Below are positions 22,287 to 63,944 of a DNA stretch of 64,000 nt, one piece after another. Within the stretch, counting starts at the first letter, position 1; each line of letters opens with the position of its first letter. Made by a program: the position numbers and the translations under genes. The notes beneath the pieces are model-generated. The model saw only the letters and a list, made by a program, of their open reading frames with translations. It ran no database searches and was not told the DNA's origin. This stretch comes from Undaria pinnatifida (lineage: Eukaryota; Sar; Phaeophyceae; Laminariales; Alariaceae): assembly GCA_012845835.1 (NCBI GenBank), contig JABAKD010000016.1, positions 6,727,919 to 6,791,918 on the forward strand, given 5' to 3'.

Positions 22287-25223
22287 CTTCTTAGCACCGC
22301 CGTAGCCATTCGAGACGCCAGCAGAATCAGCAAAGACGGCGGCAGCCACTCCGCCGCCCTCCGCTCTGGAATTGTGTATCCCCACGTTCCCTTCTGCCAC
22401 CCACTGGTCCGTTTCCGGGTCGAAAGCGTAAAAGTCTCCCGTCGCGGCGTCAAGAGCTACCTCCTGGGCCTTTTTAGTGAAGTGTTTTTTTTGTTTTAAT
22501 ATTTTGATGTAATATTGAAGAAAAAAAAAAGAGCGCGTGGAAAAGGATGAGATAAGTAGTTTACCTGGTGCTCATTCCTGGTACTTGTTGTTCTAACCAT
22601 CCGACGATGTGCGCAGCGTGAGTTTCAACCTCCATCACTCAAAACCGTTCCCATAATGGACAGTCAAAAACCCAAGGGCAGCCCAGAAGGGAAACCTACA
22701 TATTATGTGATGCACAAACTGTTGGTTGGTTTGAAGATTTTTGGCCTTGAGAAGAACAGTCAGAGGGGTAATGCGAATTATCCCATGAGGGCCTTTTCGC
22801 CTTGCAACTGGTCTTTTGCACGGAGCACGCCAAACGGAGCAATTGCTGCGCGCACTACGACGCATTCACTGCTGACGCCAGTGAATGCAGCCCTTCTTGT
22901 CCAACCAAGCACTTGGTATCCAGCTCTCTCTCCACGCTCACACCTCTATTCACTTCACGTAATCGAGGGTATCGAGGTGTTTTGTGTTAGATTGAAACAT
23001 GCTAAACTTGAAAAACTTGTCGATAGGTTTGCTAGTGAAGGGTGTCAAGGGTGTCAAACGCGTCGAAGGACGGCGGCCAGGCCGTGCACCCAAAAAAACA
23101 CGCATGTATGGTACGCTCTTCGCGGCCAGTAGTCGCGGTGTGCGAGTACCATCATAGTGTCTCACCTCCCCAGCGCATCTCGGTTTGCCGCTGCCCCCAA
23201 AAGATTCCGGGCGTCGGGAGGAGAGTTCGAGCAGGCGACCTCCGTTCTCGCCTCCGTTGAGAACTCTCAGCATTTTGCCCCCGGTGGCACACACGTAGGC
23301 TACAATGTGCGCGCCCGGGCCGGCGGCAAAGAGACATTTCTTAGCACCAAGAACAGTTCGGATGAACACCACCAGCTGCGATTGTTTCCCGTATGCGGGC
23401 GGGGATCATGCGGGGGAACGAGAGAGATGAAGGCAGGGTTATGACCGAGCGCCCGCTTAGAGATATTTATGCGCAAAAGTAACTCTAGTATTTACTTCGT
23501 ATTGTTTTTCAGCATAACACCTGCCGCAAATGTACATGGTGTCTCTAGTCTTTTATCGTAGCACTTGCCGCAATTAGAAATGCTTTCGAGTCTTTCGGCA
23601 TACCACGTGGTGCATGAATAGAAAACCCTCAGTGTTTTGCTCCAGTACCACAAGCGTAGGCTACAACCAATGTGCGCCCCCGGGTCGGCGGCAAAGAGGC
23701 GTTTCTTGGCGGCAAAGATGGTTCAGATGAAACTAACCAAAGCTAAGACCTTGTTTTCCGTGACACGGGATCATGCGGGAAGGAGACAGAAGGGGGGGGG
23801 GTTATGGTCGACCGGTTTAGCCTTTTAAATGTGCGACTTGTTGTCGCTGGGGCATGGCTAGTATTTATTTAGCATACTGTAGCAGTTGCTGCAGAATTGC
23901 AACAATGGTGGCGCAAGATAAATATGTTTGCGCTATGTACGATTCGTGACCGGTTGAATCGAGGGTCTCAGCTTGTTTCACTCAAAAATGGACGTGGCTG
24001 TTGATGCACAGTACTGTGTAGTGCTGTGACAAGCAAGAAACAACGCAGCAATAAACTGACGATCTCTTTTGTCGGGACGCTAAGCAGGCGAGTCAGGGAA
24101 GGGTCGTTATCGAATCCCAAAGGATAGTCTATGCCTGGTATGCTGTTGTTGGTGATAGAGGGCGTTCTCCTCACTGACCTCCATACTCTGTACGATGTAG
24201 TGACGTGACTATAGACTAGACTATAGACTAGACCAGCGCGTGATAAACAACGTAGGTCTATAGACTATCGTAGTGGGTAGCAAACTAGACTATAATATAA
24301 TCAACATGTTCGTTGAAAATAATGTGCAAATAAAGGCACACACCAATGGTTACTCGTGTAAGACGCACCCTTGGGTCCAGAGTAAAACAACCAACATGCT
24401 CGCTGAAAAAAATGAAGAAAATACTCGTATTGGTGTACCAATCATGGTTTCCTATGCTTTGGATATAGTCTAGACTACGTTGACATCGCTCACGCTACAC
24501 TTGTAAAATGCGTACACGTGCCGCGTTGGTCAACGAGTATCCCAAGCCCTCTTACCTTGCGCGTTCGGGCGTGCCACGGCAACAGACGACTGTCACCATC
24601 AACAAAGACGAAGTCCAGCTTGTCTACGGCCGCAACGGCACTCTTTGACGTCAGTTCAACCGATTCCTTGTCGTAGCAAAGCTCCTGTCGGGGACAGCAG
24701 CAGTATTATTAATAGGGACAACGGTAACCACTAAATTCAATTGTTACGCAAGAAGCAAAGGTATGAAGCTCTAAACATGAGCCACGAACGCAAAGCCAGC
24801 TAACTGGCGGTCTAGACAATTGTCCTACGGTCAGAACAGGCGAATATGACGTTCCTATACACGAGGAACCTACCTGGCAAGTACACGGCTCGCCTCTGCT
24901 GTACGTGCATACCTGGCACACACTACCAGGTACATGCGTACAGCAGTACGTGCATACAACACAACGTGCGCACGGCATGTGCATACAGTGCAGTACGTGC
25001 ATGAGATACGTTTGGCATACATGCGAGGCTCCCTTATGGAGACACAGACAGCACAAACACACACCTCGAGCCCTTTCGTGAAGTGGCGCACCAAAAACTC
25101 CGTACGGCCGTGCTCCTGCCTCTCCACGAGCCGGAATGCGGAGCGAACAAGCTCGTCGAATTTCCGGAAAGCCGCCCTCCCTGCTTGCGAGCCCGAAAAC
25201 GCATCGACAATCAGCACTCTCAT
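22287..25223 (-). CDS. Class I glutamine-amidotransferase-like protein (four exons, 227 codons visible)
   Basis: Exons on -: 25223-25065, 24684-24556, 23375-23166 and 22469-22287, all phase 0, lengths 159, 129, 210 and 183. Donors are GAG|GTGTGT, AAG|GTAAGA, GAG|GTGAGA and AAG|GTATGT. An in-frame TGA directly before the ATG at 25223 supports this start. Domains: strand MRVLIVDAF (1-9), strand LDFVFVDGD (about 72-80), then FIRTVLGAKKCLFAAGPGAH (about 100-119), which lines up with the strand and nucleophile elbow of class I amidotransferases. There the usual Cys would be the Gly of AAGPG, so it may be catalytically inactive (inference). The last exon reads ATGDFYAFDPETDQWV and GNVGIHNSR. The 3' end of the gene is not resolved. 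The first acceptor of the last exon is weak; 22463 is an alternative. The family name is tentative, the exon structure is strong. Confidence 0.7.
23618..23815 (-). pseudogene. Decayed tandem copy of exon 3 inside an intron of the same gene
   Basis: 23618-23812 repeats 23255-23455 with a period near 362 bp and extends into the upstream intron. On - it keeps AAKKRLFAADPGAHI, but the Cys of the intact exon is Arg, the elbow Gly is Asp, and a four-base insertion shifts the frame after the His-Ile. It lies in the intron between exons 2 and 3, so it cannot be spliced in without breaking the protein. Confidence 0.7.
24205..24300 (+). repeat. TATAGACTAGAC repeat cluster
   Basis: Repeated TATAGACTA/TAGTCTATA words, here at 24209-24235, 24256 and 24283, again at 24466 and densely at 54345-54420. 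The word is self-complementary around CTAG. Confidence 0.6.
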
Positions 25224-25814
25224 TCACCCACCGACACCCTACGAGGATCCTGCGACGGCCCTCGAGCGACGACGGCCTCGAGAAGCCGCCCCACGCTGTA
25301 CCGAGCAGGCTTTGACGGACGCGTGCATGTGCATGTGTTATACCTGGTATGTGCTTTGTGTGCTGTGTGTACCACACTACACTACACTCCACTCCAAAAG
25401 TTACCGTACGCTCAAAAACGCGGAGGAACAAGTTGCGTTTGGTGGATCCGATCCTACCGCCTGGGTTGAGCTTGAGCTTTGAATGCCTACGGCACCTACG
25501 AAGCTAGTGACAATCTGGATAGCAACCGGTGGGTTGCGTGCATGGTGACGACGCCGTGTTGCCGTGCTACTTGGCATGGGAACGATGGCAGACAGGGCCA
25601 ACAGCCGTCGCCCAGCGACTAGGCCGCCGCGGACAAAAACTCAATGGTTGTTCAGGCCATACTGGAGGCGCGTCCGGTAAGTCTATCGTACGATATCGCA
25701 CCGTATAGTCAATGTCTTGTCTTCAAAATACGAAAATCAATCACGCCCGGATTGATTATGGGCTGACAGTCTTCGTGAAATCGTCCTGTAGACGCTCGTG
25801 CTATTGATAGCACC

Positions 25815-26430
25815 CAGGGTAGTCACCGACCAGTATCCCTCCTGAGGACAATACACCCCTTAGCACGTGCGATCATGGCGTATCACACGAAACTTGCTAG
25901 ACTAAATGATTGAGTTTTCGACGAAATCCTCAAAGAACATACCAGGTGGTACCAGGTACCTCACAGCTCTGATTATGAGGAAAGGTGTCTTTTCGTTTTT
26001 CGTTTTATCAAAATGACGCCGTGTGCCGTGCGCTTGGGTGGTGGGCCTAATAATGAGAATCAGCGACCTGTATCCCTCCTGAGGATAATACACCCCCCGT
26101 ATAGCACGTGCGATCAACGTATCACACGCAGCTTGCTAAATGAGTTTTCGACGAAATCCTCTGGTTAGTCTACATATATATCTCACAGCTAGTGATGAGA
26201 AGGGGTGTCTTTAAAAATTGCTCTTCGTTTTTTTGAAAATGACGCAACGTGCCTTGCGTTTGAGTGTCGGGCCTCAGGAGAGTCACCGACCTGTGTCCTT
26301 CTTGGGGCCATATAGTCTACACCACGCAGCACGTGCCATCGAGGTATCGAGATAGTTCATCTGCGAGCTGCTTATTATATGGGCGTCTCTTTGCATTCTT
26401 TACGGGACATCACGCCATATAGAGTCTATG
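25815..26430 (+). repeat. Rep-P tandem array, three diverged units of about 230 bp
   Basis: Units begin near 25820, 26057 and 26282 with TCACCGACC-GTATCC-CCTGAGG-like words. They hold TAGCACGTGCGATC, TATCACACG-AGCTTGCTA and TTTTCGACGAAATCCTC. Each is followed by an AAAATGACGC-GTGCC-TGCG block absent from the 56-62 kb copies. A (C)ACCAGGTA-rich insertion sits in unit 1 (25948-25966). Confidence 0.8.
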
Positions 26431-26855
26431 GGCCATGCATCAATTTCGAGTATTTTTACCTTTGGCCTGCACTACTTGTTGTCTCGTTACACTCGTAGCC
26501 CTGGTACGTACGTAGAACGTACCCCAGAAGTATCATCAATTGGTTGTCGCTACTGCTGCTGTAGGTGTCATGCCTGACCTCCACAACACGCCGTGCCACC
26601 TCCGCTGGAGGTTGGGTTCTAGATACTAGGTAGTATAAGGGCTTATTTGATACAGGGACTCGCGTCTTCGCTGCTCGATATGGCAGCAGCAGCAGAAGTG
26701 CCACTGCCACTGCCAGTTGATGGTGTAGCAGAGCGCAGCCTTATCTTCTTCCGTATTAGACTACAGCAGTAATATGAAAAACATATAACATCAGCCGCCG
26801 CCGACCCGCGCGTGTGTCCGTGCTTGCGTGCGTGCGTGCGTGTGTGTACTGAGCA

Positions 26856-26940
26856 GGTTGTGGGTTGGAGATCGCGTGAGCGTGGCCAGCTCGCCTTATG
26901 CATCAAGATACGAGAGCGGCTCGTTGCGCTATTGGGGAAA
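26856..26940 (+). CDS. Possible internal exon
   Basis: After the acceptor TGAGCAG (26855) the frame reads VVGWRSRERGQLALCIKIRE and RLVALLGK up to the donor GGAAAG|GTAAAA (26940). Charged, helical and free of stops, but short; a polypyrimidine tract is replaced by a GT-rich run. On the other strand 26643-26760 could be a Ser/Ala-rich terminal exon. Both are weak. Confidence 0.3.
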
Positions 26941-27052
26941 GGTAAAATCAGCGTACAGCGAAGCGGCGGCGCGAACTCTTCAAGCAGTCAGCTAAAGTAC
27001 CAATGATGTACTAGAGTAGTTACTAGAATAGTCACCAGAATGGTACATGCAT

Positions 27053-27316
27053 GCTACGGTAGAGGTAGCACTTTCGTCTGAAATGGTTTCCGGACGACGG
27101 GGCTCGCCTTAACCCAAAATCGCCGGAAAAAAACACGACATTTTTTTTTTCATCAATTTATTTTCGCTGTGTACCTCTAGGCCATGGGATTTTTCATCCG
27201 GTGTAGCAGTTCTATTCAAATTTCTCTCTGAATCAGTTTTTGGGAGAGGTCTCAAGCTCCTAAATCGAGGAATCTCAGAAAAAACAAAGGTTGGAGTGCA
27301 CCTCTCTCGTGGCACG
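27053..27316 (+). mobile_element. F1 foldback element
   Basis: One of the cleanest copies: left end GCTACGGTAGAGGTAGCAC, right end GAGTGCACCTCTCTCGTGGC. Inner words are CGACGGGGCTCGCC, AACCCAAAATCGCCGG, CTAGGCCATGGGATTTTTCA and GGAGAGGTCTCAAGCTCC. About 264 bp, non-coding. Confidence 0.8.
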
Positions 27317-27574
27317 CGTGAGTAACAAAGGGGACAACAACACCTACACGCGCGCTACGGTCGGTCGGGGTGTGCACCGATTTTTGTTTCTGAGACTTAC
27401 TCGCTTGAGGAAAGTTCTCTCTAACCCACTCAAAGCCTGATCTTGCTAACCCACTCAAAGCCTGATATTGAGTGCTCCGTATGAAGAGTGCGACCCGATA
27501 TGAACCGTTCCATGGCCTTCCATGGCCTACAAGAATGTATGTACAAAAAAACAAAATGGCATGGCGAACAAGAA

Positions 27575-27662
27575 TCCCATTCCGACGATAATTCGAGTTT
27601 AAGGAGCACCGCCCTTCATAAACATTTTAGCCAAAAAGTGCTAACTCCTGTCGCAGCACTCG
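27575..27662 (-). mobile_element. F1 element fragment (reverse)
   Basis: CCGACGATAATTCGAGTTTAAGGAGC and AGCCAAAAAGTGCTAACTCC match the right part of the reversed copy at 17395-17722. The other half is missing. Confidence 0.5.
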
Positions 27663-27964
27663 TCAAGGTTGGGTTCACTACTGTACCAACCGTTTTGGGA
27701 GATTGTAGAGCGACTTGTCCACAACAAAAAAAATGTGGTATTACCGTGTATAATAACTCGCAGAGTGCGAGCTTGCAACATACGACGACAGCCGTCCACG
27801 CTACGTACGCGCGTGTCGCAAACTTTCTTACTTTTGTAGCCCGCCGTTCAAGGCACACCCTGTCACTAACCTACAGTAGCGCCGTCCGCGTTGTTCGGTG
27901 TGGGCGATGCTTTGTAGCCGTCAGTTTTTGAAGTCGTCGCCTTTTCTCTATGATATACTCAGGT

Positions 27965-28376
27965 CTACCAGACTGCTAGGTTACCAGACTGCTGTACGCA
28001 ATAGCATCTATTTAATAGCATCTGCCGTATCTGCTTCGAAGTGTACCGCTGTGTGCTCATATCGTGGGACCTCCACGAACTGCACGCCCAAAAATGCCCA
28101 TATACCTGGGCAGCAAACGTGGTGTATGACATCGTGTTCATCACTGCCTGCCTTACGAGTACAAAGCGCACACGTGCTGACGTGCTGACAGCGACCACTT
28201 TGCCGCTCGTCAACCAACATCCAGATCCATTGCGCTGCTGGATACTGGGCTGGAATCGAGCTCGACCTTCCCCACGGCCAGGTAAGGTCTGCCATGATCT
28301 CAAGTATATTTACACGCCAGCAGTGTAAACTCTCAGCAAACAACACCAAACACAGTTCCGTAGTAGGAGCATACAT
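27965..28376 (-). CDS. Uncertain open frames, one possibly coding
   Basis: Two overlapping - frames of 112 and 122 codons both look protein-like. One holds MADLTWPWGRSSSIPAQYPA and HHVCCPGIWAFLGVQFVEVP, the other KVVAVSTSARVRFVLVRQAV. No ATG context, splice border or family settles between them, so at most one is real. Confidence 0.25.
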
Positions 28377-28586
28377 TGAGTACCAGGTGTTCGATTAAAC
28401 AAATCGTGTTTTTGTAACGTATCTGGAACAGGAAGCGTTACCTGGTAGCTGTGATGAAATCGAGAGCGTCATCGAAACTCATCTTTACATACTGCGTGTG
28501 ATGATGTAGGCTGTTTCACAGCAGGAGCATGGTCAGGCGTAATGCACGGCCCCCCTTCGGGGGGGTGGTCATCCTTAACGTGCGCA

Positions 28587-28808
28587 GTTAACCCATTTCC
28601 AACTCCCAGAATTGTCCTGGTCTAACTCAAAGTGTTTTGTCCCGATGTCGGGAGTGCGGTGCTATACGGATTAACGAGCACTTTGGGGCAAAAAATATAC
28701 TCTGATCGACCGGGCTCCTTAACCCTTTTAGCACCGCAGTCCCGACATTGGGACAAAACACTTGGATTATACAGTGGATTTTTTTTTACGAGTTGGAAAT
28801 GGGTTAAC
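28587..28808. mobile_element. F2: 222-bp near-palindromic foldback element
   Basis: Left arm GTTAACCCATTTCCAACTC...AAGTGTTTTGTCCCGA-GTCGGGA-TGCGGTGCTA; the right arm is its reverse complement and ends GAGTTGGAAATGGGTTAAC. Arms span about 85-95 bp around a loop of about 40 bp. It sits within F1 sequence: the loop and right flank carry F1 words (GGGCTCCTTAACCC; then CTAGGCCATGGGATGG at 28890). A GC hairpin (CCCCCCTTCGGGGGGG) lies just left, at 28549-28565. Fragments of the right arm recur at 5085-5150 and 29448-29510. Confidence 0.75.
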
Positions 28809-29232
28809 CTGTTACTAAAATAGTCGGAATGTCATTTTCGTTTTCGCAATATGTATATAATGTACATACTGAAGTATAGACTAGTTTGTGTACCTAGGCC
28901 ATGGGATGGTTTGTTCGTCCGGTTGTACTTTCATTTGTTCTCAAAAATTATTTTTGCCGTGGAGGGGTATCTATCATTAACTCAATATTATTCAATCTAT
29001 CCCTAAATCCATGATTAAATCTGTTATTAAACCCATTATTAAATATATTATCAAGTCTATTATTAAATATATTGTTAAATACGAAGTATATTATTAAATC
29101 TATTAATTAAATCTATGATCAAATCTATTACTAAATCTATTATTAAATCTCTTATAAAAGAACACAACTCCTCAAGCTCGAAGAGAAGTATTAGAAAAAA
29201 AAGATGGCGCGCCTACCGTGCTGTTAGTACTA
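28670..29232 (+). mobile_element. F1 element, interrupted copy
   Basis: F1 words occur in order at 28670-28725, 28865-28970 and 29160-29232 (GTGTACCTAGGCC; CTCCTCAAGCTCGAAG; GCGCGCCTACCGTGCTG). They are separated by the F2 right arm and an AT-rich repeat. The right border extends into GTTAGTACTATTAGTGG, which recurs after the F1 copy at 37451-37705. Confidence 0.55.
28978..29160 (+). repeat. AT-rich tandem repeat (TCTATTATTAAA-like, about 13 bp)
   Basis: More than ten diverged units of an ATTAAATCTATT 12-14-mer, lying inside the interrupted F1 copy. Confidence 0.85.
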
Positions 29233-29954
29233 TTAGTGGAATGTGACTCCCTTCCACGTGGAGACCGTCCAATCATCTAAATTTGGAGTCGTCGGGTTAT
29301 ATATACTGTAGTTCTGATAAATACGACAGCTTCTGAGGTCACCCGATTTTTTATTTACCGCAGAGTTTGTGCTCAGCTTTGCAAGCTGTGCGGTACGTCT
29401 GTGGAGGAGTTTCGAAACGTAACATGGACTGCAGCTGCAGGGTTAACCCTTTTAGAACTGCACTCCCATGTTTTTTTGGGAAGAACGACTTGGAATTAGA
29501 CTAACACTGTTTTGTAGTAGCAGTAGCAGAGGGTTGAGGCGCTGCTATGGGGCATGCGCTACCACCGAGCGCAGCTTGGCGTTCCTCGCCGGGACAACTA
29601 ACACCCAATCGCCAGGGCTGTGAGCTGCCTGGAGTTATTAATTAATTCACGGGCAACTAGTTGGGTGGCGAACTACTGTAAGCCAACCAACTGACTTACA
29701 GTAGTGTAGTAGTGGTTGTCGAGTAAAAAAACACACGTTGAGCCAAAAACACGCTACAGTAGTAAGATACAAACACAGGCGCAAAACTCCGCATCAAAAT
29801 TACCGTACTCAACTACCTGTAATGTACTGTAGTGCCTAGCCAACTAATAGCTACACAGTAATCTAGTCGTTGACTTACTATTTAATATTAGCATACTATT
29901 GGCATAGTCAGCCAACTCACAGTCCCACTAATTGCCCTGAACAAATGCTAACAG
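29233..29954. other. Upstream region or intron of the CAP-Gly gene
   Basis: No exon for the N-terminal half of the CAP-Gly domain can be seen here. The stretch holds an F2-like fragment at 29448-29510 and a set of CTACAGTA/TACTGTAG words at 29680-29850. The missing upstream exon may be shorter than I can recognise or lie further left. Confidence 0.45.
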
Positions 29955-30770
29955 AACAACGGCAGCTTGGACGGGCGCCGGTATTTTGTGTGCGGCTCCG
30001 ACCGTGGCCTTTTCGTGCGCGTGGGGCGGTGCCGGACCCACGACGGCTACGGCCTAACCAACGGACGTCGAACGCCATCCTTGCCTCGAACCATGCTCAC
30101 TGGTGTAAGCAGTGGGCGTCGTAGACCATTCCCGGCGCAAACCATGCGAAAGGGAGTAGACGATGAAGACAACAACAGCAGCGTGGAGTCCCTCGTGCGA
30201 AGGAGGGTAGGCGAGGAAGACGACAGCAGCAGTGCCGAGCCTCCCCCGAAGAAAATGCTGGACACTGCCAATGCCGATGCTGACGAAAAGGTGGGTGACA
30301 GCAATATCGAGAGCCCCAAGCAGAAAACGGTGCACGCTGCCGATGATGCTCACGGCAAGGTTTCGTTCAACCTTTCGTCCAAAGGTCACCTTTCGGCGAA
30401 AGCTGGCGACAAGGTTGCGCTGAAACTTTCGACGAAAGACCTTCTGTCGACAAATGACGACCGTTCGTCGAAACTTGCCGATGAGGTTTCGATGAACCTT
30501 TTGTCAGCAGCTGACCTGTCTTCGACAGTTGTGTTGAACCTCTCGTTGAAAGACGACCCTCCGTCGAAAGCTGACGGCTTGTCGATAGGTGGAGCCCCCC
30601 CCCCTGCCGTTTTTAGTCCTGATAGCTCCCTCCCCGGCCAACCCGTGGCTGCTACGACCACTCCCGTGATGTCAACGCCGACCGGTTCGTCTTCTGATAT
30701 TGCGGGGTCGAAACCGGATATTTCTGGACATGCTCCGGGGAGCGGCCTGGTTCCCAATATCATCAAGAAG
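29955..30770 (+). CDS. CAP-Gly gene, visible exon 1
   Basis: The acceptor CTAACAG ends at 29954, just after an in-frame TAA. Residues 1-25 are the CAP-Gly C-half. Residues about 60-110 are acidic (DDEDNNSS, EEDDSSSAEPPPKKM). From about 135 comes a row of imperfect repeats of the kind LSSKGHLSAKAGDKVALKLS, in which short FNL/LKL strands alternate with SSK-D loops. Donor AAGAAG|GTACGG, phase 0. Confidence 0.85.
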
Positions 30771-33700
30771 GTACGGCCGGGTTTTCCCGTGTGTGGAGGC
30801 TTGCCACGGTAGGGGCTTGCTACGGTAGGAGTTGCACTTTTAAGATGAAACCTTTCTCACTAACGGAGCTCCTCAACTCTGTTGTTGTTGTTGTTATTAC
30901 TAATTCCAAGTAGTCTGTTTCCAAAATCGTGCGTGCAAGCAAATGTAACGAGGTCCATTAACGCCTGCCGTGTCACTTTTTTGTCTTGCAGACTAAGCCA
31001 GAAGAAGTGCAGGGCTACGAGTACGCCCTCGCTCAGGTACCCTTTAATGGAGAAGGGGGGCAAAGTTGGAGCACAGCTGAAGACAATACCAACACCTCTG
31101 TGGTTTCACCAGGTTCAGGAATAACGAGGGACCGCAACAACGATTGCTTTACGGGAAACGGCAGAAAACATGATCACCATAGCAATTGCGCTACGGTGGA
31201 AGAACATTCACACACGCGATGCCAAACTTCGATCGTCAAACGCAACTGTTTATCTAGAAGCTGCGACGAACAGGGTGAGGCGTATGTCCCCGGTGACGCA
31301 TCCATATATGTCTCCGATGGCACATCAATTTATGTCCCCGGTGGCGTATCAATGCCCGGCACTGTCTATAGCCCGGCGCTGCACACGCAAGCGACAGCCC
31401 ACGAAAATGCGGAAATAAGTCGTTCGGTAGTTGGAACGCCTCTCTTTGGATGGACAGCCGACAAAGAGACGAACAAAAATCCTTCGGCGGTTGGAATGCC
31501 CTCCCTTGGAGAGAACCTTGTCGGACGAGCTCTTGAGGGAGGTGGAGAGATAGCGAACGTCAACCTTTCAGAGAGTGATCATCGCAGCGACCACACCTCG
31601 GCGTCCTCACAACTGGTTCGAACTGCGCAAGCACCTCCTTTCCAAGGTCCTGCTCTTGCCAATCTCGAGATCGGTGGAAACACGCAGGTACTGTTGCGTG
31701 ACAACCTCAGGACCGATGGAACCATGCAGGGGCTGCTGTCGCATGACGCATTTGCTGCCGGAAGCTTGCCTGAATCGTTGTTGCCGAGCGAGAATAAACT
31801 GTGCCCGATACCGGCGCCTCCTGTCAAGGGTAGTAGCGCGTGGACGGTAGTTGTTGCGGCCAGACCGATTTCTGCCCCAGGCGAAGCGTCGCCAGAAAAC
31901 CGCAATGGAAGAGATCAAACCTGCCGTCGGGAGGAACCGTTTCGCCGAACGAGCTGTGATGATCGGCACGTACTAGTAGTCGGTACGCACCGGCCCTCAT
32001 GTTTGGCAGATGCAGCCGATTCTTATGCTCCGGAGGAAACAGTTGGGGACGTTCCTCGTCTTCCTGCTGGCGGAGAGGACGGCGAAACAGCTAAAGTCGA
32101 GACAAAAGAGTGGCAACATCATCATGCCATGGAGGGCAGCGCCATGCCAAATAAGCCGTCTAACGCGATGGTAGACAGTGCGCTCTCTTTGCCAAGTATG
32201 TCGTTGAATGAGGTGGAGGACAGCGCACCCTCCATGCCCAGCATATCGAACAAGAGCAGAAGCGACGCCAGCACAAGCGCAGGGCGTTGCCGAGCAATTG
32301 TTCCCTGGGCACCACCCTTCGCTGCTGAAGACAGCGGTAGCTTGGACACAGCGATGTACGGCGTGTTGCCGAGGCCTTTGAGAAACAGCGAGGGTAAGTG
32401 CCAACCGATGGTGAGATCTTCGGTTAGTCGCTCAGCGCTGACGCCTACCCAAAACAGAAGAAGTCGCGGTGAGTTTGAAACAAACAACTTGCAGGTGGCG
32501 GTACGTACCCCGCAAGGGTGCAAAAACTCGCGAAATATCTCCGTTGCAGGTAGAACCTTCCCTGGGGCGATTTATCCTACTGAGGATGCGACGCTTCTGC
32601 CCTCCACTCAACCTCGAAATAACCAAAACGTTGTCTATCAACGGGGGGGGGAATGGATGTCGATAGGGGAAGCGGATACGAACATTTTGGACGGAGTTTT
32701 ATCTACAACACCTCTGGTTGCGATGCGGCCGGAGATGACTCGACCGCTGCAAACGATCGCTCGTCAATGCGACGATGGCTCGTTGGTCCGCGCGCCGGTA
32801 CTTCGATGCGGCGCTGAGCCATCATGTGAACCCGCGGCGCCCTGTATTGTGGGAACTACCGACCGACCTACCCCAACTCACGGGTTTCCGGCATGCCCAC
32901 TTGCTTTGACCACAGGGGGTACGGTTTACCCCGGTCGGGCGAGGGACAAGCCGTTGACAGCTGGTGTTTCGGGGGGAAGCACGTTGTCCCCTGACCGAAC
33001 GTTGGCAGTTGTTTCAAGGGAGGGTACCCAAGGGAACGCGGAAGGAGAGGGGTTTGTGCACCCACCAAAACCTTGGCGCGACGATGGCGGAAGGGATCAT
33101 GCGCTGGCGAGCGAAATTGCCGCCGCGTCGGTGAAGTATTACTATGAAACGGGGGCTGTTGAACCACCGAATCAGACGAGGCAGCTTGAACCGAGTCGGC
33201 ACGCCAGCGAAAAAGCCTTGGGTCAGACTAGGCGCCAAGAAAGCAAAGAGTTGGCGGACTCTGAAAACGTTGTGAAACAGGTAAAAGAGCACAGAAGGGG
33301 AGGAGCTGCCACAGCGTCCACGCTGAAGAGCGAGCCTCTGCCGCAAAACTTGACTAGCTCTGGTGCGGATGACGACGATGTACATAGATCTCGAAGCGAA
33401 ACGTCCTCCGACGTGTTGAGTGTGTCCTTTGACGAGAAATTCGCTGAGACTCGCCGACAGAAAAGCGGCGATGAAACGCTCTCAACGGAAGATCACGGGC
33501 AACACGAAAGCGAGACGGTGGTGTTCTTCGCAGGGGGAGGGGGGGGGGAGTATTCCTTGCAAACGACGCCGAGAGCCAGCGGCAAGGGGGTGCATGTTTC
33601 AGTTTCTCAAGGTGAAACACGGTGTTCGAGCCCGTCCTCGACAGCGAAACCCTCGGCAACCACGGATAAAAAAGATCGTGGTTTTTCAGCTACGGATATG

Positions 33701-36700
33701 GAACGTGGTATATCAACTACGGATAATGGACGTGATACATCAATTACGGATAGCGAATGTGGTACCGGTATATCAACTACGAGTAAAGAATGTGGCATTT
33801 CAACGTCGCGACTGATCTGTGTGTCACCGCCCACTCTGCTTGGATCACTACAGCTCGTCGGCGGGGATGAGCCAGTGGTAATAGACATGGAGGACAGCAT
33901 AGATCTAGCGCAGGTGACGCCTGCGACGGTATCAGTCAAATGCACCCCGACGCTCTCAGTGATGGGAGAGCGGGCTGACCCACCAGCACCGCCAACCCAA
34001 TATTTATTCTCTCCCGCTCTGCGACCACCGCGGCCATCGTCGCCAACACAATCGGCACTCTTCCACCCTCTACCACCACCGCCCCCGCCACCGCCAGGGC
34101 TTGGGCAGCTCGAGAAAGACGCTGCACCCACCGCCGGTCCTCACGCTAGCGTCGGGTCAAGAACAAGCTCGTCTGGGAGCATGTCAAACTCATGTGGCAA
34201 CGTTTACTCCGGCACCGACTTCGATGAAGACGATGACCATGTTCGCCCACCTCGGTCGCTAAGCTATCGGCGACGGCGGCCACGGTTGGAGATATTGCGG
34301 CAATTGCCTACTGGTGAGGATGGGCAAAGGGGTGTTGGGCTTGAAGGCGTCGGGGAGCAATCGTTTACTGGTGCGCAGAGATATAATGAAAGTGAAAACA
34401 TCGGGCAACAGTTGCCTGCCGGTGGGCCGAGAGACATTGGACGTGAACACAGCGGGCAGGAATGTGCAGAGCAGTCAAATCGAAGGTGAGTTCTTTCGGA
34501 AGCTTTTCGTTGAAGGTCGAACTAGCTCCTGTGTGTCGTATCAAAGACGTCCTGTGGCGCTCCAAGATTGGTCATTATCATATCGAACGAATCCTCGTGT
34601 CGTTTCTCAGTGGTACGTAGCGCGATCGCTGACAGTAAAATGCATTGAAGGCCACCACTCCCGGCCAACCCCTTCGACCCCGCCAAAACGAAGTTGAGTA
34701 CTAGGCATTGAGTGCGATTCTCAATGTATCGCTACATACAGTCGTAATTGATATGCCCGATAATTGTGTTGAGAAGGGCAACATTTTTTTTTGTACGAGA
34801 TGGTTAGAGACAAAACACTTCTGAGCCATGTCCGCGAGTACTGTAGCTTCGTTCGTTTTGCTTCATTTCTGTCCATCCCATCGTTTTTTTTCAAGCTCTT
34901 TACGCCAGCCCCATCTCGTTTAGCCACTTAGATACGGGGTTGCATACTTAGATCCGGGGTTTACATACCAGGCACTCGCTATAAAATACTCCGAGGAGCG
35001 CATGTCAGCCCTGACACTTCCTAACATTTGCCAGCTCTCGCTATGCGATCCCGTGTGTGTACAGGGCATCCAGCTCCATCACTTCTCCCCCACTGCCAGC
35101 TCAAAGTGTACATACAGCATCGGTGGGATTGGTGCCGGCTGCGTCGCCCGGGAGAATGGCGAACGTCCCGAGCAAAAATCGTCCTGTATCCCAAGCCGGT
35201 TGCCAGCAGCAGCAGGAGGCAGACCCACCGATGAACTGCGCTCTTGAAAGTGTAAATCGTTTTGAAACAAGGGGTTTCCCCGAGAAGAAAAAATGCACCG
35301 AGAAAAAAAAACGGAGGTTTTGCCGCAAACGATACCCTCCGCCGCCCGGCCCGCCGCCGTCGCCGTCGCCGGATTCTCCGCGTGTGTCTCCTCCGCGGGT
35401 ACGGTGGGAGCTACCTGTGGGAAAACGGGCGGTAGCGACGAGGGACGGCGGCGGCAGCTGCAATGCTTCCCGAGAGCATGTCGTAAATCTGGTGGGTGAT
35501 TTTTTGGTGGAGGGCTTTGCTTTGAGGGATTCGTTGAAAATGTTCTCATAGGGTTAGGGTCAGTTTGGTGGGTCTAGCTTTGAGGAATTCGTTCAAAATT
35601 CCTTTATCAGCACAGTGGTCGTTTATGTTATTTTCAAGAGCTACAAAGAAAGAGAAAATAATGGCATAGAAGGGTCCTTACGTACTGTAGTTTATTATGT
35701 AGACGTTAAAGTAGTTCATGCGTGCGATACTCGCTCAGTGCATTGACGCAATTATCCTGCCCATGTACTCCAAATGGTACTGCACTTGCCGGCTCTTACC
35801 TGGTAGATCCAACCAACTTCCTTTGTATTGCCGCAATAAAGACTCAAAGATAACTCGTTCCCTTCATACCATCCTCCCCTACACATATCATTGCACCCCC
35901 CCCCCCCCCGGCATTTTCTCCTCCTGTACATGGCAACCCCCCCCCCCTCTCGTGCCCTTCTCCTGCACATGCAACTCCCACACCTAGAACCTTCCCCCTT
36001 AACGTCGTAAACTCGCATTCTTACGCTGTTTGTTACTTGGATTGTTCTCTCGTCAGGGTTCCCACGACCTTGTGGACGAAAAACCCGTCGACGGTGACGG
36101 CTGCAGCCAAGAAAGTGGACAACTTCGTCCAACGACAGGAGCACACCAAACAGACCCAGCGGCGGTGTCCGAAGCCGAACAAGTCGAAGTAGTATTTTTA
36201 CCCCCGTCCACCCCCCCGCCTCCACACGCACGGCGGCGGGCGAAACGCTCACCGCTACCGACTCCACCCAGCCCCGCCCACGTCATCACCGAAATACAAC
36301 CTGATACGCCAACATCAACAACACGCGGCGCGGGCAGTAGCACCAGAGAAACATCGACACCCGGCGAGGGAGAACTACTGGCTGCGCGCGCGCCGTCGAG
36401 TCAACGATCAACCCACCGGACTTGCAGTAGCATGGACGGCGTTGATGATTCTGGGTCGGCAAGCGAGCGCCTTGCTCCACGGAAAAACACCGCCGCGGGT
36501 GTACACACACGCGAAGCTGGTAGCCACTTACACGAGGGCAGAGAGCTTGTGCCAAGTCTGAGTCGAACCTGCGCCGTCGCGGCACCAAGCGCGCGCGAAG
36601 ATAGCAGCTACACAACACGCGAAAACAACGGGGATTTATTAGGTCTGGGGTATGGTGATAGCCAACAGGGGTCGGAAATTAAACCGGCTGCGGGAGGAGG

Positions 36701-38588
36701 TGGTTGGAGCAGCAGCTATGACGGATCCGCGGCCAAACGACGTGCACATGGTATTTGTGTCAGGGTTGCGGCCCTGGAGGATTTGTTGGACCGGGTCGAA
36801 AAGGAGGCCCTTGCAGGAACGCTTGGAATGGGCACTACATCGAGCGGTGTCGACGGTGTGGGTGATGGGGCCGAGCACGGTTCGGCTGGGGTTGATATCG
36901 ATTTGAAGAGCGCTCGAGAGGGCGAAGAGGGCATACGTGACGTCACGACTGCTGCTGCGAATTCAGTGGGTGCAGTGAGCATACGTGGCGTCACGGACAC
37001 TGCTCCAAGACCAAAACCAGGTGCGCAAGAGCGAGGTGGGGTCTCAGGCATAGCTATGTATATGTTCGGACGTGTTTCGGGATGATCATGGCTTCGGGTC
37101 TGGAATGCCGCTGAGTACGCAAACCTGCGTCTGTAGAACTTCGCACAGTCTCCGTACCCCCTACGGACGAAGGCTACGGTTTTCGGTTGAGAGAGCACTT
37201 TCCGTGCCTTTTTTTTTTCAGCGGCTTTAATGGGTCACTCGCTCGAGTGGCTACCCTATGTCACTGAGAGTTCAAAACGTTTGTGCTTTTGAGTATTTTC
37301 GAGAAATACGCTTGCAACCATGCATTTTTTTTTTTAATATTATAAATGCAACGTCAGCTGCGATTTTGACAAACTTACAGTAGGGTCGATTTTTTTGTAC
37401 GCTGCTCGGAATGATTATGGGGTATACAAGTATGTATGGTAGAATGACGCGTGCTAGGATAGAGGCAGCGTTTTTATTTTTTTTTCTGAGTGACGGAGGT
37501 GTTTATCTGACCCATCATCGCCCGACTTCATATTTTTCTAGTTCTTTTAACTTTGCTGTAATATCTAGGCCATGGGATTGTTGATCGAGGATATGATAAA
37601 TAGCACTCACAGTTTTCTCCACACATCGGTTGATGGGAGAGGAAAAGACATCCTCAAGCGAGGTTATGAGCCTCAGAAAGAAAATGGTGTACCTCTACGG
37701 TACTGTTAGTGCTATTAGTACCATGGCCTTGATATCGATATGCCTAAACCAGCGAAGTCCCCCTGTAACCATCTCGTACAGCCCAAAGCACCCGTTCGAT
37801 ACACGTCTGTCTTTTCCCCATCACCCACCACCTACTCAAACGATGCAGGAGGAGGAGGGACCATCCAAGCGAATAACCCATGCACCGAGGTCGCGGCGGT
37901 AGGTGGTAGCGACTCTACTGACGATACTTTTCGAGCTGTATCCGCTATACGCGATGAGCTATCGTCCCACCGCCTTTTGTCGGAAGGCACCACTCGAGGT
38001 CACCAGAAAACGCCAGATGCAGCTAGGAAACCCAGTACAGCCACCGAGACTGAGATGGAATCACGAAGCGAACAGCAGATAGAGTTCCACGGCGACACAG
38101 CAATTTTGCCCATGGCATTGGCTGTGGCCAGTCAGCTGGCCGCGCCAGGGCGACGAGCGCTTCAAGGGGTAACCTTAGTTCCTAGCAACAGTGAATATGC
38201 TGTGAATAAAAGCTTAGTGCAGGGGGAGACTGAAAACGCTGCGGATTTACCCTTAGTTCGCGATGGCAATGAAAACGCTGTGGACAGAAATTTAGGTCGT
38301 GGTGACAGTGCAACTGCTGTGGATAGAATATTGCGTCGTGATGACAGTGAACGTGCCGTGGATATAATCTTACGTCGTGGTGACAGTGAACGTGCTGTGG
38401 GTAGAGCCTTAGATAGTGATGGGAACAACAGTGAAAATGTGGCTGACAGTTTCTACTTCAACCTTGGGAGGAGTATGGTACAGGACAGCTTCGGGTCTGA
38501 GCGGACCGTGGACACTGCGAGTACCGCAAATCGTAGCTCGTTCGGTTGGGATGCTGGCGGGTTGTTAGGAAGTATCACCGGTCTATGA
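29955..38588 (+). CDS. CAP-Gly domain protein with very long low-complexity tail (five visible exons)
   Basis: Exons 29955-30770, 30992-34485, 35065-35491, 36057-37020 and 37753-38588. Phases 0, 2, 0, 1 chain without a stop, giving 2178 residues plus TGA. Known: CAP-Gly domains bind the C-terminal EEY/F tails of alpha-tubulin and of EB and CLIP proteins. Seen: the first visible exon opens NNGSLDGRRYF and continues GLFVR, the second half of the CAP-Gly consensus, cut exactly at the GKNDG motif, with N for D. The other roughly 2140 residues are Ser/Thr/Gly/Glu-rich, with internal repeats, a poly-Pro run and a basic cluster. They hold no second recognisable domain. Inferred role: a microtubule plus-end or cortical scaffold. 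The N-terminal exon(s) are not found. The exon 3 link rests on phase agreement and composition. Confidence 0.85.
30819..30882 (+). mobile_element. F1 left-end fragment in an intron of the CAP-Gly gene
   Basis: GCTACGGTAGGAGTTGCAC, then CTAACGGAGCTCCTCAAC, as in the F1 left half. It is confined to the 220-bp intron 30771-30991. Confidence 0.5.
30992..34485 (+). CDS. CAP-Gly gene, exon 2 (giant exon, 1164 codons)
   Basis: The acceptor TTTTTGTCTTGCAG has a good pyrimidine tract and the donor is CGAAG|GTGAGT. Internal repeats are seen near 31285-31350 (IYVSDGTSIYVPGGVS), 32140-32240 (SLPSMSLNEVEDSAPSMPS) and 33680-33800 (GISTTD-like units of about 11 residues, four to five times). A PPPPPPPPG stretch lies near 34075-34100, followed by a Ser-rich then Arg-rich segment. 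An exon of 3.5 kb is unusual beside the 0.1-1-kb exons elsewhere here. Antisense frames are shadows. Confidence 0.85.
35065..35491 (+). CDS. CAP-Gly gene, exon 3
   Basis: The acceptor GTGTGTGTACAG (ending 35064) takes the one base needed to complete the split codon, and the donor AATCTG|GTGGGT (35491) leaves phase 0, matching exon 4. It encodes QQQQEADPPM, a basic block (EKKKCTEKKKRRFCRKR) that could be a nuclear or microtubule-contact segment, and a Pro-rich stretch (PPPPGPPPSPSPDSP). The frame continues past the donor to 35551, so an alternative end exists. Confidence 0.65.
36057..37020 (+). CDS. CAP-Gly gene, exon 4
   Basis: Acceptor TTCTCTCGTCAG. Pro-rich start (LPPSTPPPPHARRRAKRSPL), a Ser/Thr-rich middle, and one well-formed amphipathic helix (VAALEDLLDRVEKEALAGTL, near 36760-36820) that is the only clearly ordered piece of the tail. 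Donor CCAG|GTGCGC, phase 1. If unspliced the frame stops at 37083-37085, giving a shorter isoform. Confidence 0.75.
37451..37705 (+). mobile_element. F1 element inside the last intron of the CAP-Gly gene
   Basis: Left end GTGCTAGGATAGAGGCAGCG, right end GTGTACCTCTACGGTACTG, core CTAGGCCATGGGATTG. It lies wholly between the donor at 37021 and the acceptor at 37752, about 45 bp upstream of that acceptor. Confidence 0.7.
37753..38588 (+). CDS. CAP-Gly gene, terminal exon 5
   Basis: The acceptor CCTAAACCAG (ending 37752) supplies the two bases needed after the phase-1 donor; the acceptor at 37781 would not fit. About 278 codons to TGA. Residues encoded at 38180-38440 form five to six diverged 15-17-residue repeats of the type GDSERAVDIILRR, alternating acidic and basic. 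A TGTAA word, a polyadenylation signal in some algae, lies at about 38608. Confidence 0.8.
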
Positions 38589-43680: not shown

Positions 43681-43800
43681 CGACGTACTTGGTACTTTGT
43701 CTCGCTATCTGTCACCACAGAGCTTGTCTCTCTCTAGGACACGTTAACTTGGTACTTTGTCTCGCTATCTGTCACCACAGAGCTTGTCTCTCTCTAGGAC
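43681..43800 (+). repeat. 60-bp tandem duplication
   Basis: Two 60-bp units differing only in the first few bases (GACGTACTTGG against ACGTTAACTTGG). The homologous place in copy 2 (62040-62105) has a single unit, so this arose after the segmental duplication or was lost there. Confidence 0.95.
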
Positions 43801-44887
43801 GAAGAGTTAGCACTACACTGTATAAGATGTGAAGGATGTCGACGGGTAGAAAGAAGGGCTTAATGTGATTACCACGCGCATAGGGGTATGAAGCAAAACA
43901 GAATAGTTGACTGCCAACGTTAGCTGATCGCGGCCATATTGTTGGCGTTGGCGTCGTACGCGGTGGTGTGGAGGTTAAGGTGGTTGTATTTCTTGTTGCG
44001 CGATCGGTGTTAAACCGTCACTTGTCCAGGAGAGCGGTAAATGAATGAAGCAAGAATGCCTTGTACTTGCAGCAGGCCGTGCGCGACGTAAAATAAAAGA
44101 AAAAAAAAACGTCGATTTCAACACACACAGCTGCAACACCGAGTAGTCAATCGCGCGAACAAGCTTACCTTACGTACAAACGACCGACGTACGTGCCAAG
44201 TATGTCACAACCTTCCCGCATGACCTGCTTCTTGTAAGAATACCTTATTTTGAAATCGTACCATATCTAACAATTTTGTCGCTTGGACGATACCAACATG
44301 ATACATGCACACCATTAACCAGTTAACTAATCAGCGGCGACTGTTAGCTCTGCGGCTATAGTGAGCATGTATCAAAATCATAAACTGGGGTCCGTCTGGC
44401 TATTACGCCTAAACCTCAGATTAACATCAGGGCTACAGTCTGTTCCGTCAGCACTGCTAACCTCCCGGGACATCGCGCTCTTAAAAAAATAAATATGTAC
44501 ACAAGATTACACAACTCAGGAGACTGACTGCACCCTACAATACTGTGCAGTGCAAAGGATGAAACGACTGAGGAACTAACAGCACCCTATAACATCCTGC
44601 AACCTACTAAATAGGCTGCTGGAAGGAACACGCCGTCGTACGTACACGTACCGACGGTTTGATCCTTGTTTTTGTTACTCCTCTCCCGTCCCTCGGCTCC
44701 ACCCCTACTTGGGCTGACACCACCGTGTTCAACCCCCCCTTCTAATCAGGAGAACCCTCAACCCCCCCCCCCCCCTCCCTCCCCCCCCCCCGCCCCTGCT
44801 CCTAACCATCAAAAGTCTCCTCCCCGCACCCCCATCTGTCCACACCCCACCACTCCCCCCCCTCCTCCCGAACAGCAGACCCCTCAC

Positions 44888-45354
44888 CCGCCGCCGTCCA
44901 CCGCGACGTCCCCAGCGGCGTCGCTCGAGGCCGAGCCGGGGCCCTTGTCCTCCCCGTCAGTGGCGGCGCCCTCGCTCGACGCCTTGTCGGCCACCGCCGA
45001 CATCGTCGCGGCCGCCATCCTCCACCGGACCAGGCGAACCGCCACCGCCCTCTTCTCCCTGACCGAGAAGAACCGCCCCAGCCGCTTGCAGCTTGCGTTC
45101 TTACGCTGGGCGTTTGCTTCCTCCACCGACGCGCGATAGATTGCCCAGGCGCTGAAGTTGTGAAGGGCGTAGAACCCCTCGTGCTTCAGAAGCCTACCCC
45201 GGATCTTGAACAGCCGGTTGAGCTTGATCCTCCGCACCTCGTTCCGGGCCTTTTTGAGGTGTTTCTTCGTCTGTCGCGCGTCCGTGACCATAGCTCTGCA
45301 TGCGGCCTTCGTGCGCATCGCGTACAGGAATGACGCGAGAAGCAGCAACACAAC
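44888..45354 (-). CDS. Exon of a basic, Trp/Arg-rich helical protein, copy 1
   Basis: Seen on -: acceptor CACTAG (ending 45355), 155 codons in phase 0, donor GGCGG|GTGAGG at 44888 leaving phase 2. It reads VVLLLLASFLYAMRTK, a charged helical segment (RQTKKHLKKARNEVRRIKLN), FSAWAIYRASVEEANAQRK, RAVAVRLVRWRMAAA, then an acidic Ala/Gly end. Spaced Trp/Arg helices recall Sfi1- or IQ-type arrays (known to bind centrin or calmodulin), but I see no true IQ motif. Flanking exons are not found. The + strand frame over the same bases is a shadow. The downstream intron is G-rich (poly-C on +). Confidence 0.6.
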
Positions 45355-45659
45355 CTAGTGGCGCAACACAAAGACCGAAAAAAAAGAAAAAGCAGGACAG
45401 AAAATTGGGTAAGTTATATAAGAGTAGGGTACGGGGGTGAACGAGCAACACGCGACACGGAAAGATAGGCAAGCTAAGAGCAAAAGGTGTGGGCGAGCGA
45501 GCACACGGAAGTCAAGTCTTGGCATAATACAAAATAATGCGTTATTAGATAGTAGTGTGGGGTGACAACTATTTAATTCATACCATTAATAAAGTGAAGG
45601 GGTGAAACTTTGTTGATTCATACAACTAACAGCGTAATAATTCACAATGGTTGACTTCT

Positions 45660-45745
45660 ACCTTCTAGAACACCCCCTCCCCACTACGGTATAATAACGC
45701 CTTCATTTTTATCGCGAGAATAATTCAGCATTTTCTTCCCTCGTC
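45660..45745 (-). mobile_element. SINE-A 3' body fragment
   Basis: The reverse complement of the SINE-A core: CGACGAG, AATGCTGAATTATTCTCGCG, GATAAAAATGAAGGC. Closest to the copy at 51404-51665. It is part of the segmental duplication (partner at 63945-64000). Confidence 0.6.
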
Positions 45746-59939: not shown

Positions 59940-60750
59940 CCCCCCCCCCCCCCGCCCCTCCAACGCCCCCTCTTTTCCGACCACCTGCACGATCGCCTAG
60001 ACCTAGCACCACGCGTATAACAAGCTGCTACATATCTTTGATCTCACAGCCGAAGTGTATTTGAATATTATTTGTGACCTAAACCTCCTAAAAAATCCCC
60101 CCCCCCCCCCTTTTGCTCTCCCTTACTCAAACGCCCCACCAAATATCGAAATCCGCCACATTAATAAACACTTCACGCACAGGATATCACCTCATTATCT
60201 TTCGAGAGCCATCCATGCCGCTGTGTCCCCCCCCCCCCCCCCGCCTCGAACGCTCCCTTCTTCCCCATCACCCGCACCATCGCCTAGACCTAGCACCACA
60301 CGTATAACAAACCCCTCAACTAAAGCCCTTCCTCCCCCCGCCCCCCCTCCAACGCCCCCTCTTTTCCGACCACCTGCACGATCGCCTAGACCTAGCACCA
60401 CGCGTATAACAAGCTGCTACATATCTTTGATCTCACAGCCGAAGTGTATTTGAATATTATTTGTGACCTAAACCTCCTAAAAAATCTCCCCCCCCCCCCC
60501 CCCCCCCCCCCTCTTGCTCTCCCTTACTCAAACGCCTCACCAAATATCGAAATCCGCCACATTAATAAACACTTCACGCACAGGATATCACCTCATTATC
60601 TTTCGAGAGCCATCCATGCCGCTGTGTCCCCCCCCCCCCCCCCCGCCTCGAACGCCCCCTCTTCCCCATCACCCGCACCATCGCCTAGACCTAGCACCAC
60701 ACGTATAACAAACCCCTCACCTAAAGCCCTTCCTCCCCCCCCCCCACCCC
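59940..60750 (+). repeat. Two tandem units of about 400 bp with poly-C tracts
   Basis: 59960-60350 repeats at 60352-60750. The CGATCGCCTAGACCTAGCAC word occurs four times (59991, 60282, 60382, 60683), so each unit is itself internally duplicated. TATTTGAATATTATTTGTGA and AATATCGAAATCCGCCACAT occur once per unit. Poly-C runs of 10-30 bases punctuate both units. Pro-rich frames here are artefacts. Confidence 0.85.
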
Positions 60751-60754
60751 CCCC

Positions 60755-61065
60755 GCCCCCCCCCCGCCCCCACATCCCCCACCTCCCCCCCAACCCATCC
60801 CAACCCCACCCCCTCGAACACTCCACCCTCTTCTTACTCACTGATTGTACGACTTACCCCAGGATATACATGATAAACTGATGTATTATTTCCAAAACCG
60901 TCACATTTATCCCCTCAAAATAATGTATAGTTTCCAGGCACATATTGAGCTGCCCCCCCCGCCCCGCCCCCCCCCCCGCCCCCAATAATATACTGGTGCC
61001 AAAACCGTCAGATTTATCCCCTCGAAAGGATTTATAGCTTACATGCACAAATTGCCCCCTTTCCC
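60755..61065 (+). repeat. Rep-P partial copies with C-tracts
   Basis: Two truncated 5' halves (60755-60960 and 60960-61065), each with TTTATCCCCTC, AATGTATAGTTT or GGATTTATAGCTT, and C-rich runs. Confidence 0.65.
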
Positions 61066-61965: not shown

Positions 61966-63184
61966 TATCCGGTATGCTATGCCTTGGTACCACGTACTAG
62001 GGACGAGGAAAATAAAACATTGGCTGACGACACGTATATACGCACGACGTACCTGGTACTCTGTCTCGCCATCTGTCACCACAGAGCTTGTATCCCAATA
62101 ATAGGACGAAGAATCAGCACGGACGCTGTATGTAGATGTAGAGGATGTCGACGGATAGAAATAGGGGTTTAATGTCAGTAACACGGGTATCAACCGAAAC
62201 AAAATCACTGACTGCCGACGTTAGCTGATCGCGGCCATATGGATGGCGTTGGGGTCGTGCGCAGTGGTGTGGACAATCTTGTTGTGCGATCGGTCATGTT
62301 GTTCACGTCCATGGGACTAACAGTAGAGAGTGGTAAATGAAGCAAGAATGCCTCGTACTTGCAGCAGGCCATGCGCGACGTAAAATAAAAGAAGAAAGAA
62401 AACCGTCGAAGATTTCGACACATACAGCAGCAACACTGAGTAGTCAATCGCACGAACAGGCTTACCTTACGTACAAACGACCGACGTACGTGCTAAGTAT
62501 GTCACAACCTTCCCGCATGACCTGTCTCTTGTAAGAATACCTTATTTCGAAATCGTACCATCTCTAAGAATTTTGTCGCTTGGACGATACCTTGATGATA
62601 CACGCACACCATTAACCAGTTAACTAATCAGCGGCGACTGTTAGCTCTGCGGCTATAGTGAGCATGTAACAAGATCAAAAACTGGGGTCCGTCTGGCTGT
62701 TACGCCTAACCCTCAGATTAACATAAGGGTTACAGTCTGTTCCTTCAGCAATGCTAACCTCCCGGGACATCGCGCTCTTAAAAAAATAAATATGTACACA
62801 AGATTACACAACTCAGGAGACTGACTGCATCCTACAATACTGTGCAGTGCAAAGGATGAAGCGACTGAGGAACTAACAGCACCCTATAACATCCTGCAAC
62901 CTACTAAATAGGCTGCTGGAAGGAACACGCCGTCGTACGTACACGTACCGACGGTTTGATCCTTGTTTTTGTTACTCCTCTCCCGTCCCTCGGCTCCACC
63001 CCTACTTGGGCTGACACCACCGTGTTCAACCCCCCCTTCTAATCAGGAGAACCCTCAACCCCCCCCCCCCCCTCCCTCCCCCCCCCCCGCCCCTGCTCCT
63101 AACCATCAAAAGTCTCCTCCCCGCACCCCCATCTGTCCACACCCCACCACTCCCCCCCCTCCTCCCGAACAGCAGACCCCTCAC

Positions 63185-63651: not shown

Positions 63652-63944
63652 CTGATGGGGAGACACAAGACCATAAAAAAAAAACACGGAAACTTCGGTA
63701 AGGTAGGGGGGGGTGCACGAGCAACACGCGACACGGAAAATTGGGCAAGCTAAGGGCAAAAGGTGTGGGCGAGCGAGCACACAGAATTCAAGTCTTGGCA
63801 CAATACAAAATAATGCAGTATCAGGTGGTAGAAGGGGTGAGATTTAATGTACTTATAATATAAGTAAATTAAGGGGGTGGAACTTTGGTGGCTCATGCAA
63901 CTAACAGCGTAATAATTCACAATGCTTGACTTCCACCTCTAGGA

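What the first reader, a model, noticed from the sequence alone, without database searches (positions are those of the whole stretch)
29955..38588. CAP-Gly protein with a giant repeat-rich disordered tail
Five exons chain in phase to 2178 codons, yet only the first 25 visible residues belong to a known domain (the CAP-Gly C-half). The tail has four distinct families of short internal repeats, a poly-Pro run and a basic cluster. Known CAP-Gly proteins usually add coiled coils or dynactin-type partners; this layout is unusual and may be a lineage-specific microtubule scaffold.
Basis: partly seen in the sequence, partly recalled or inferred. Interest (0 to 1): 0.7.

Follow-up and report, generated by a model that had tools for sequence, protein, structure and literature searches.

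The report
CAP-Gly protein with giant disordered tail

Summary
The CAP-Gly half at 29955 is real, though alone it is sub-threshold (23.2 bits, cut-off 26.5). Two further exons lie upstream, at 26857-26941 and 28225-28281; with them all 65 Pfam positions match at 71.4 bits, E 5.9e-20. With a plausible first exon (25576-25676), eight exons with GT-AG introns read in phase to 2,196 residues. The CAP-Gly domain is therefore whole and N-terminal. It sits between two basic stretches (+9 and +8) and is followed by 2,089 residues rich in Ser, Thr, Pro and Gly, with no second above-threshold Pfam domain in the exons scanned and one short predicted amphipathic helix. Exon 5 (1,164 codons) is open far beyond chance; exons 6 and 8 rest on weak evidence. 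Two of five recognised EEY/F-contact residues are changed (F to C, K to Q), although alpha-tubulin here ends in EEY (3 of 3 genes followed). Best reading: a CAP-Gly microtubule binder, probably weak or modified, used as a flexible tether or scaffold. It resembles +TIPs and p150Glued in layout, but membership in neither is shown. No eukaryotic relatives could be searched, so 'lineage-specific' stays untested.

The parts
25576..25676 (+). probable exon 1: ATG start, Arg-rich N-terminal extension (33 codons and 2 bases), donor CCG|gtaagt
   Evidence: phase fits exon 2 exactly; phase and donor evidence only, no homology; net charge of residues 1-36 is +9
26857..26941 (+). exon 2: first third of CAP-Gly (LWVGDRVSVASSPYASRYESGSLRYWGK), donor AAG|gtaaaa
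28225..28281 (+). exon 3: middle of CAP-Gly (IHCAAGYWAGIELDLPHGQ), acceptor catccag|ATC, donor CAG|gtaagg
29955..30770 (+). exon 4: end of CAP-Gly (NNGSLDGRRYFVCGSDRGLFVRVGRC), basic linker, acidic/Ser stretch, irregular Leu/Ser/Lys repeats
   Evidence: PF01302 positions 40-65; domain 1-65/65 when joined
30992..34485 (+). exon 5: 1,164-codon tail with 24- and 27-nt in-frame repeats, poly-Pro run and RRRRPR cluster
   Evidence: open frame far beyond chance; acceptor ttttttgtcttgcag|ACT, donor AAG|gtgagt
35065..35398 (+). exon 6 (insecure; other acceptors such as 35035, other donor at 35492): Lys/Arg cluster followed by Pro-rich stretch
   Evidence: phase and splice candidates only; length not above chance
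36057..37020 (+). exon 7: tail with short amphipathic helix GICVRVAALEDLLDRVEKEAL; donor 37021 or 37036
   Evidence: 360-codon frame; acceptor ttgttctctcgtcag|GGT; helix
37849..38588 (+). exon 8 (moderately insecure): 13-residue repeats (39 nt) and stop codon
   Evidence: 289-codon frame, in-frame 39-nt repeat

Best explanation
A single eukaryotic gene of about 13 kb (eight exons, 25576-38588) encodes a 2,196-residue protein. A complete N-terminal CAP-Gly domain, flanked by two Arg-rich stretches, is followed by a long, mostly disordered tail. Most likely mechanism (inferred): the CAP-Gly groove engages the EEY end of alpha-tubulin or a similar acidic-aromatic tail, helped by the basic flanks on the acidic microtubule surface. 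The tail, with its repeats, Pro-rich runs and basic clusters, acts as a flexible multivalent tether that recruits other factors. Because the groove lysine and a phenylalanine are replaced (Q, C), the docking is probably weaker or of altered specificity. Shown: domain completeness, in-phase splice sites, no second copy found for exons 4, 7 and 8. Inferred: microtubule binding, disorder, tether role.
For: Full PF01302 match, 71.4 bits, 1-65/65, 68.1 bits in the longer context. The joined domain matches 36 distinct PDB sequences at E up to 0.001, led by CLIPR-59, KIF13B, CLIP4 and CEP350, with CLIP-170 and dynactin-1 following. In-phase chain with GT-AG introns, start and stop. Basic flanks +9 and +8. 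Alpha-tubulin ends EEY in 3 of 3 genes followed to their last exon, and one EB1 C-terminal match exists. Equivalents of W57, N69 and R90 (dynactin-1 numbering from PMC3583065, passages; placing them on this protein is my own reading of the motif) are kept. Tail make-up: 59% disorder-promoting and 24% order-promoting residues against 46-57% and 26-36% in 8 conserved kinesin/TCP-1 segments.
Against: F52 and K68 equivalents are C and Q; CLIP-170 mutants of the matching lysine (K98E, K252A) bind microtubules less (PMC9062740, passages). The tail has no codon bias: exons 5, 7 and 8 score -0.21, -0.24 and -0.30 bits per codon, the lowest or next to lowest of their six frames, although some tails continuing real kinesin exons score -0.14 to -0.22 (L046, L047, L053). 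A charge-hydropathy test puts the whole tail just on the folded side of its boundary, as it does 7 of 11 segments. SxIP-like motifs are near chance, 4 against 3.0. No transcript data.
Confidence: 0.6

Rival explanations
1. Two genes: a CAP-Gly protein ending at or soon after exon 5, with exons 6-8 belonging to a second downstream gene or to nothing.
For: Exons 6 and 8 are not beyond chance by length; exon 6 has many alternative boundaries; codon usage in exons 7 and 8 does not favour coding.
Against: The four longest frames of the window (1175, 360, 289, 286) lie in order on one strand within 9 kb and can be chained in phase; exon 7 starts with a good acceptor.
Confidence: 0.25
2. It is the genome's dynactin p150Glued (DCTN1): N-terminal CAP-Gly with basic linker, the rest diverged.
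For: N-terminal CAP-Gly plus basic flanks as in p150; dynactin-1 CAP-Gly domains are among the PDB hits.
Against: No long coiled coil by a simple heptad count; no PF12455 in the exons scanned. PF12455 gave no match in the whole genome, but its control also rang nowhere, so absence is not shown.
Confidence: 0.07
3. A CAP-Gly domain that has lost EEY binding and serves another ligand, or is drifting in a relaxed, fast-evolving gene.
For: K68 to Q and F52 to C; repeat copies differ more at non-synonymous than synonymous codons (13 against 7, 11 against 3, 5 against 0; not corrected for numbers of sites); no codon bias in the tail.
Against: The frame stays open over 1,164 codons and the domain still aligns to all 65 profile positions.
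Confidence: 0.2

Closest known systems
CLIP-170 / CLIP family (+TIPs; CLIPR-59, CLIP4, Bik1)
   Same: CAP-Gly domain with Ser/basic-rich surroundings; best PDB matches include CLIP-type domains
   Different: one CAP-Gly; no long coiled coil by heptad count; no zinc knuckle among the Pfam hits of the exons scanned; K of GKNDG replaced by Q; tail of about 2,090 residues
Dynactin-1 p150Glued
   Same: single N-terminal CAP-Gly with basic residues on both sides
   Different: no long coiled coils, no PF12455 match in the exons scanned
CEP350 and KIF13B (large proteins carrying one CAP-Gly)
   Same: one CAP-Gly in a large protein; both among the best PDB hits
   Different: no kinesin motor among the Pfam hits here; CAP-Gly is N-terminal here, C-terminal in both others (recalled)

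Membership tests
CAP-Gly domain (PF01302) | full-length match above curated cut-off | tested here: met
   71.4 bits against 26.5, positions 1-65/65
CAP-Gly domain with canonical EEY/F groove | groove residues F, W, K, N, R (dynactin-1 F52, W57, K68, N69, R90) | tested here: not met
   3 of 5 kept (W, N, R); F to C and K to Q, placed by motif spacing and the alignments; residue list. Membership in PF01302 is unaffected; canonical binding is in doubt
CLIP-170 family | tandem CAP-Gly, coiled coil, zinc knuckles (recalled) | tested here: not met
   one CAP-Gly and no other above-threshold Pfam domain in the exons scanned one by one; heptad windows at one place only
Dynactin p150Glued | two long coiled coils after an N-terminal CAP-Gly | tested here: not met
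   simple heptad count: 3 overlapping windows at one place
Dynactin p150Glued | PF12455 dynactin domain | tested here: inconclusive
   not in the exons scanned; genome-wide search negative, control silent
+TIP by EB1 binding | SxIP motifs in excess of chance | tested here: not met
   pattern [ST].[IL]P: 4 observed, 3.0 expected in shuffles; all four have L in place of I
microtubule-associated protein | binds microtubules | not testable with these tools
   needs protein

The most novel reading that the evidence does not exclude
A lineage-specific microtubule-end scaffold in which one CAP-Gly domain with a rewired groove (GQNNG, Cys for Phe) is coupled to a 2,000-residue low-complexity tail that forms multivalent or condensate-like assemblies without any long dimerising coiled coil.
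Probability: 0.15. Interest if true: 0.5.

Novelty: new variant of a known kind. Interest (0 to 1): 0.3.

Why it matters
If confirmed, it adds an architecture (N-terminal CAP-Gly plus giant tail, no long coiled coil, altered groove) to a protein class known mainly from animals and fungi (recalled). It also gives a concrete test of how far CAP-Gly domains depend on the conserved lysine. In the library held, 0 papers hold both 'CAP-Gly' and 'brown alga', 1 holds 'CAP-Gly', 'stramenopile' and 'microtubule' (the dynactin paper), and 1 holds 'CAP-Gly' and 'Ectocarpus' (on Vps9 proteins). As a gene it is otherwise ordinary.

Tried and rejected
A strict motif search for the missing CAP-Gly half found nothing; loosening it found both exons. 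A genome search with the exon 5 protein was sent four times and never answered, so a paralogue of exon 5 is not excluded; exons 4, 7 and 8 give only themselves or hits at E above 0.3. Codon bias trained on 50 conserved exons (3,995 codons) does not support the tail as coding. Frame continuations beyond conserved segments, used as controls, vary widely; of eight with more than 100 codons, two (L058, L029) look like intron read-through by composition and should not count. The other six run from +0.33 to -0.22. Purifying selection on the repeats was looked for and not seen. Sub-threshold family hits set aside as chance: DUF4719 on the exon 8 frame (12.9 bits, cut-off 27; E 0.094; not seen with the shorter exon) and TIGR00562 on exon 4 (11.5 bits, cut-off 97.85). 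No Rfam family in the window. Structure prediction was not used, as the spliced protein is not contiguous in the window. The phase-separation reading rests on analogy to Bik1 and CLIP-170 papers seen only as a listing with the start of the abstract (PMC11782662, PMC8664194). A broader literature listing (10 of 2,026 papers with at least 2 of 5 terms) showed none with 'CAP-Gly'.

Full report
What was checked. The window is G000:C22:6727919-6791918 of a 511-Mb eukaryotic genome in 68 contigs. The five frames reported are present. The first gives a CAP_GLY match of 23.2 bits, below the cut-off of 26.5, over profile positions 40-65.

The missing half. A loosened motif scan of the upstream plus-strand frames found two short stretches with the remaining parts of the domain. 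The sequence shows splice sites at both: gagcag|GTTG...GGAAAG|gtaaaa (26857-26941) and catccag|ATC...GGCCAG|gtaagg (28225-28281). Joined to 29955 onwards they give PF01302 1-65/65 at 71.4 bits, E 5.9e-20. In the PDB the joined domain finds 36 distinct sequences at E up to 0.001, led by CLIPR-59 (54.1 bits), KIF13B, CLIP4 and CEP350, with CLIP-170 and dynactin-1 following. So the domain is complete and the gene starts upstream of the reported coordinates. A candidate first exon (25576-25676, ATG...GTCCG|gtaagt) fits the phase exactly; it lies head to head with a minus-strand frame that begins at 25223. No homology supports exon 1.

The whole chain. Eight exons, with seven GT-AG introns, read from ATG to stop as 2,196 residues. 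Evidence is uneven. In Markov simulations of 64-kb windows (40 per setting, four settings) no frame reached 1,164 codons; 360-codon frames appear 0-0.05 times per window; 286-289-codon frames 0.08-1.0 times; 178-codon frames 5-20 times. So exon 5 is certain, exon 4 is anchored by the domain, exon 7 is likely, exon 8 is plausible and exon 6 is weak, with several alternative boundaries. The four longest frames of the window are those of exons 5, 7, 8 and 4, on one strand in one 9-kb stretch.

Codon usage. Fifty conserved TCP-1 and kinesin exons (3,995 codons) show strong bias to C/G-ending codons. Exons 1-3 are near neutral (-0.07 to +0.10 bits per codon) and exon 4 is +0.01. Exons 5, 7 and 8 are -0.21, -0.24 and -0.30 (the last two scored over 36060-37082 and 37852-38585), the lowest or next to lowest of their six frames; the frame holding exon 6 is -0.12. 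This is evidence against coding, or at least a sign of fast evolution. Six control tails in the same genome that look genuine by composition range from +0.33 (L041) to -0.22 (L047), so the value is low but not unique.

The tail. Residues 108-2196 are 37% Ser/Thr/Pro/Gly, with 59% disorder-promoting and 24% order-promoting residues. The out-of-frame translations of exon 5 have 25-29% Ser/Thr/Pro/Gly. The charge-hydropathy test lies at the boundary, just on the folded side for the tail as a whole, so 'disordered' rests on composition and on the lack of any above-threshold domain when the exons were scanned one by one. Repeats of 24, 27 and 39 nt are in frame, but the copies differ mostly by amino-acid changes. 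One place in exon 7 has a 28-residue window with all eight heptad core positions hydrophobic; 1 of 100 shuffled tails does the same.

Mechanism. Alpha-tubulin in this genome ends in GEEY (3 of 3 genes whose last exon I followed) and one EB1 C-terminal match exists (its last residues were not found), so the usual CAP-Gly ligand is available. Of the five key residues named for dynactin-1 (F52, W57, K68, N69, R90; PMC3583065, passages read) the window protein keeps W, N and R and has C and Q for F and K; the placing is mine, by motif spacing. CLIP-170 mutants K98E and K252A bind microtubules less (PMC9062740, passages read). Six other CAP-Gly fragments are known from the genome. At the lysine position two have K (L002, L006) and four do not: N in L001, T in L004, R in L005 and R in L003 (left out of the alignment). 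So loss of this lysine is common here. The phenylalanine, in contrast, is kept in 5 of the 5 fragments that cover it (L001, L002, L003, L004, L006), so the cysteine is the odder change. Basic stretches before (+9 in 36 residues) and after (+8 in 41) the domain could make up for a weaker groove. I therefore favour a microtubule-associated tether with weak or altered EEY binding.

What is not known. No eukaryotic collection could be searched. One scan each of viral and prokaryotic contigs with the joined domain confirmed no relative, as expected. Whether the layout is lineage-specific is open. A separate dynactin-1 was not found by PF12455, but that search had no positive control. The exon 5 protein could not be searched in its own genome.

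Noticed in passing
43747-45668 and 62051-63942: Direct duplication of about 1.9 kb, 90.1% identical, 18 kb apart, with shared frames on both strands.
   Followed up: partly
27179, 28896, 37567: Three introns of this gene share the word AGGCCATGGGA, and the copies at 28896 and 37567 share further patchy similarity downstream, perhaps a dispersed element; the copy at 28896 carries an AT-rich tandem stretch at 28969-29159.
   Followed up: partly
24870-25223 (minus strand): Head-to-head frame starting MRVLIVDAFSGSQAGRAAF, no Pfam match at E up to 0.01.
   Followed up: partly
59945-60760: Tandem repeat with a 401-base unit, about two copies, with C-rich runs.
   Followed up: no
L073, L074, L075: Three alpha-tubulin genes ending in identical EEEDFGEEY tails.
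   Followed up: yes
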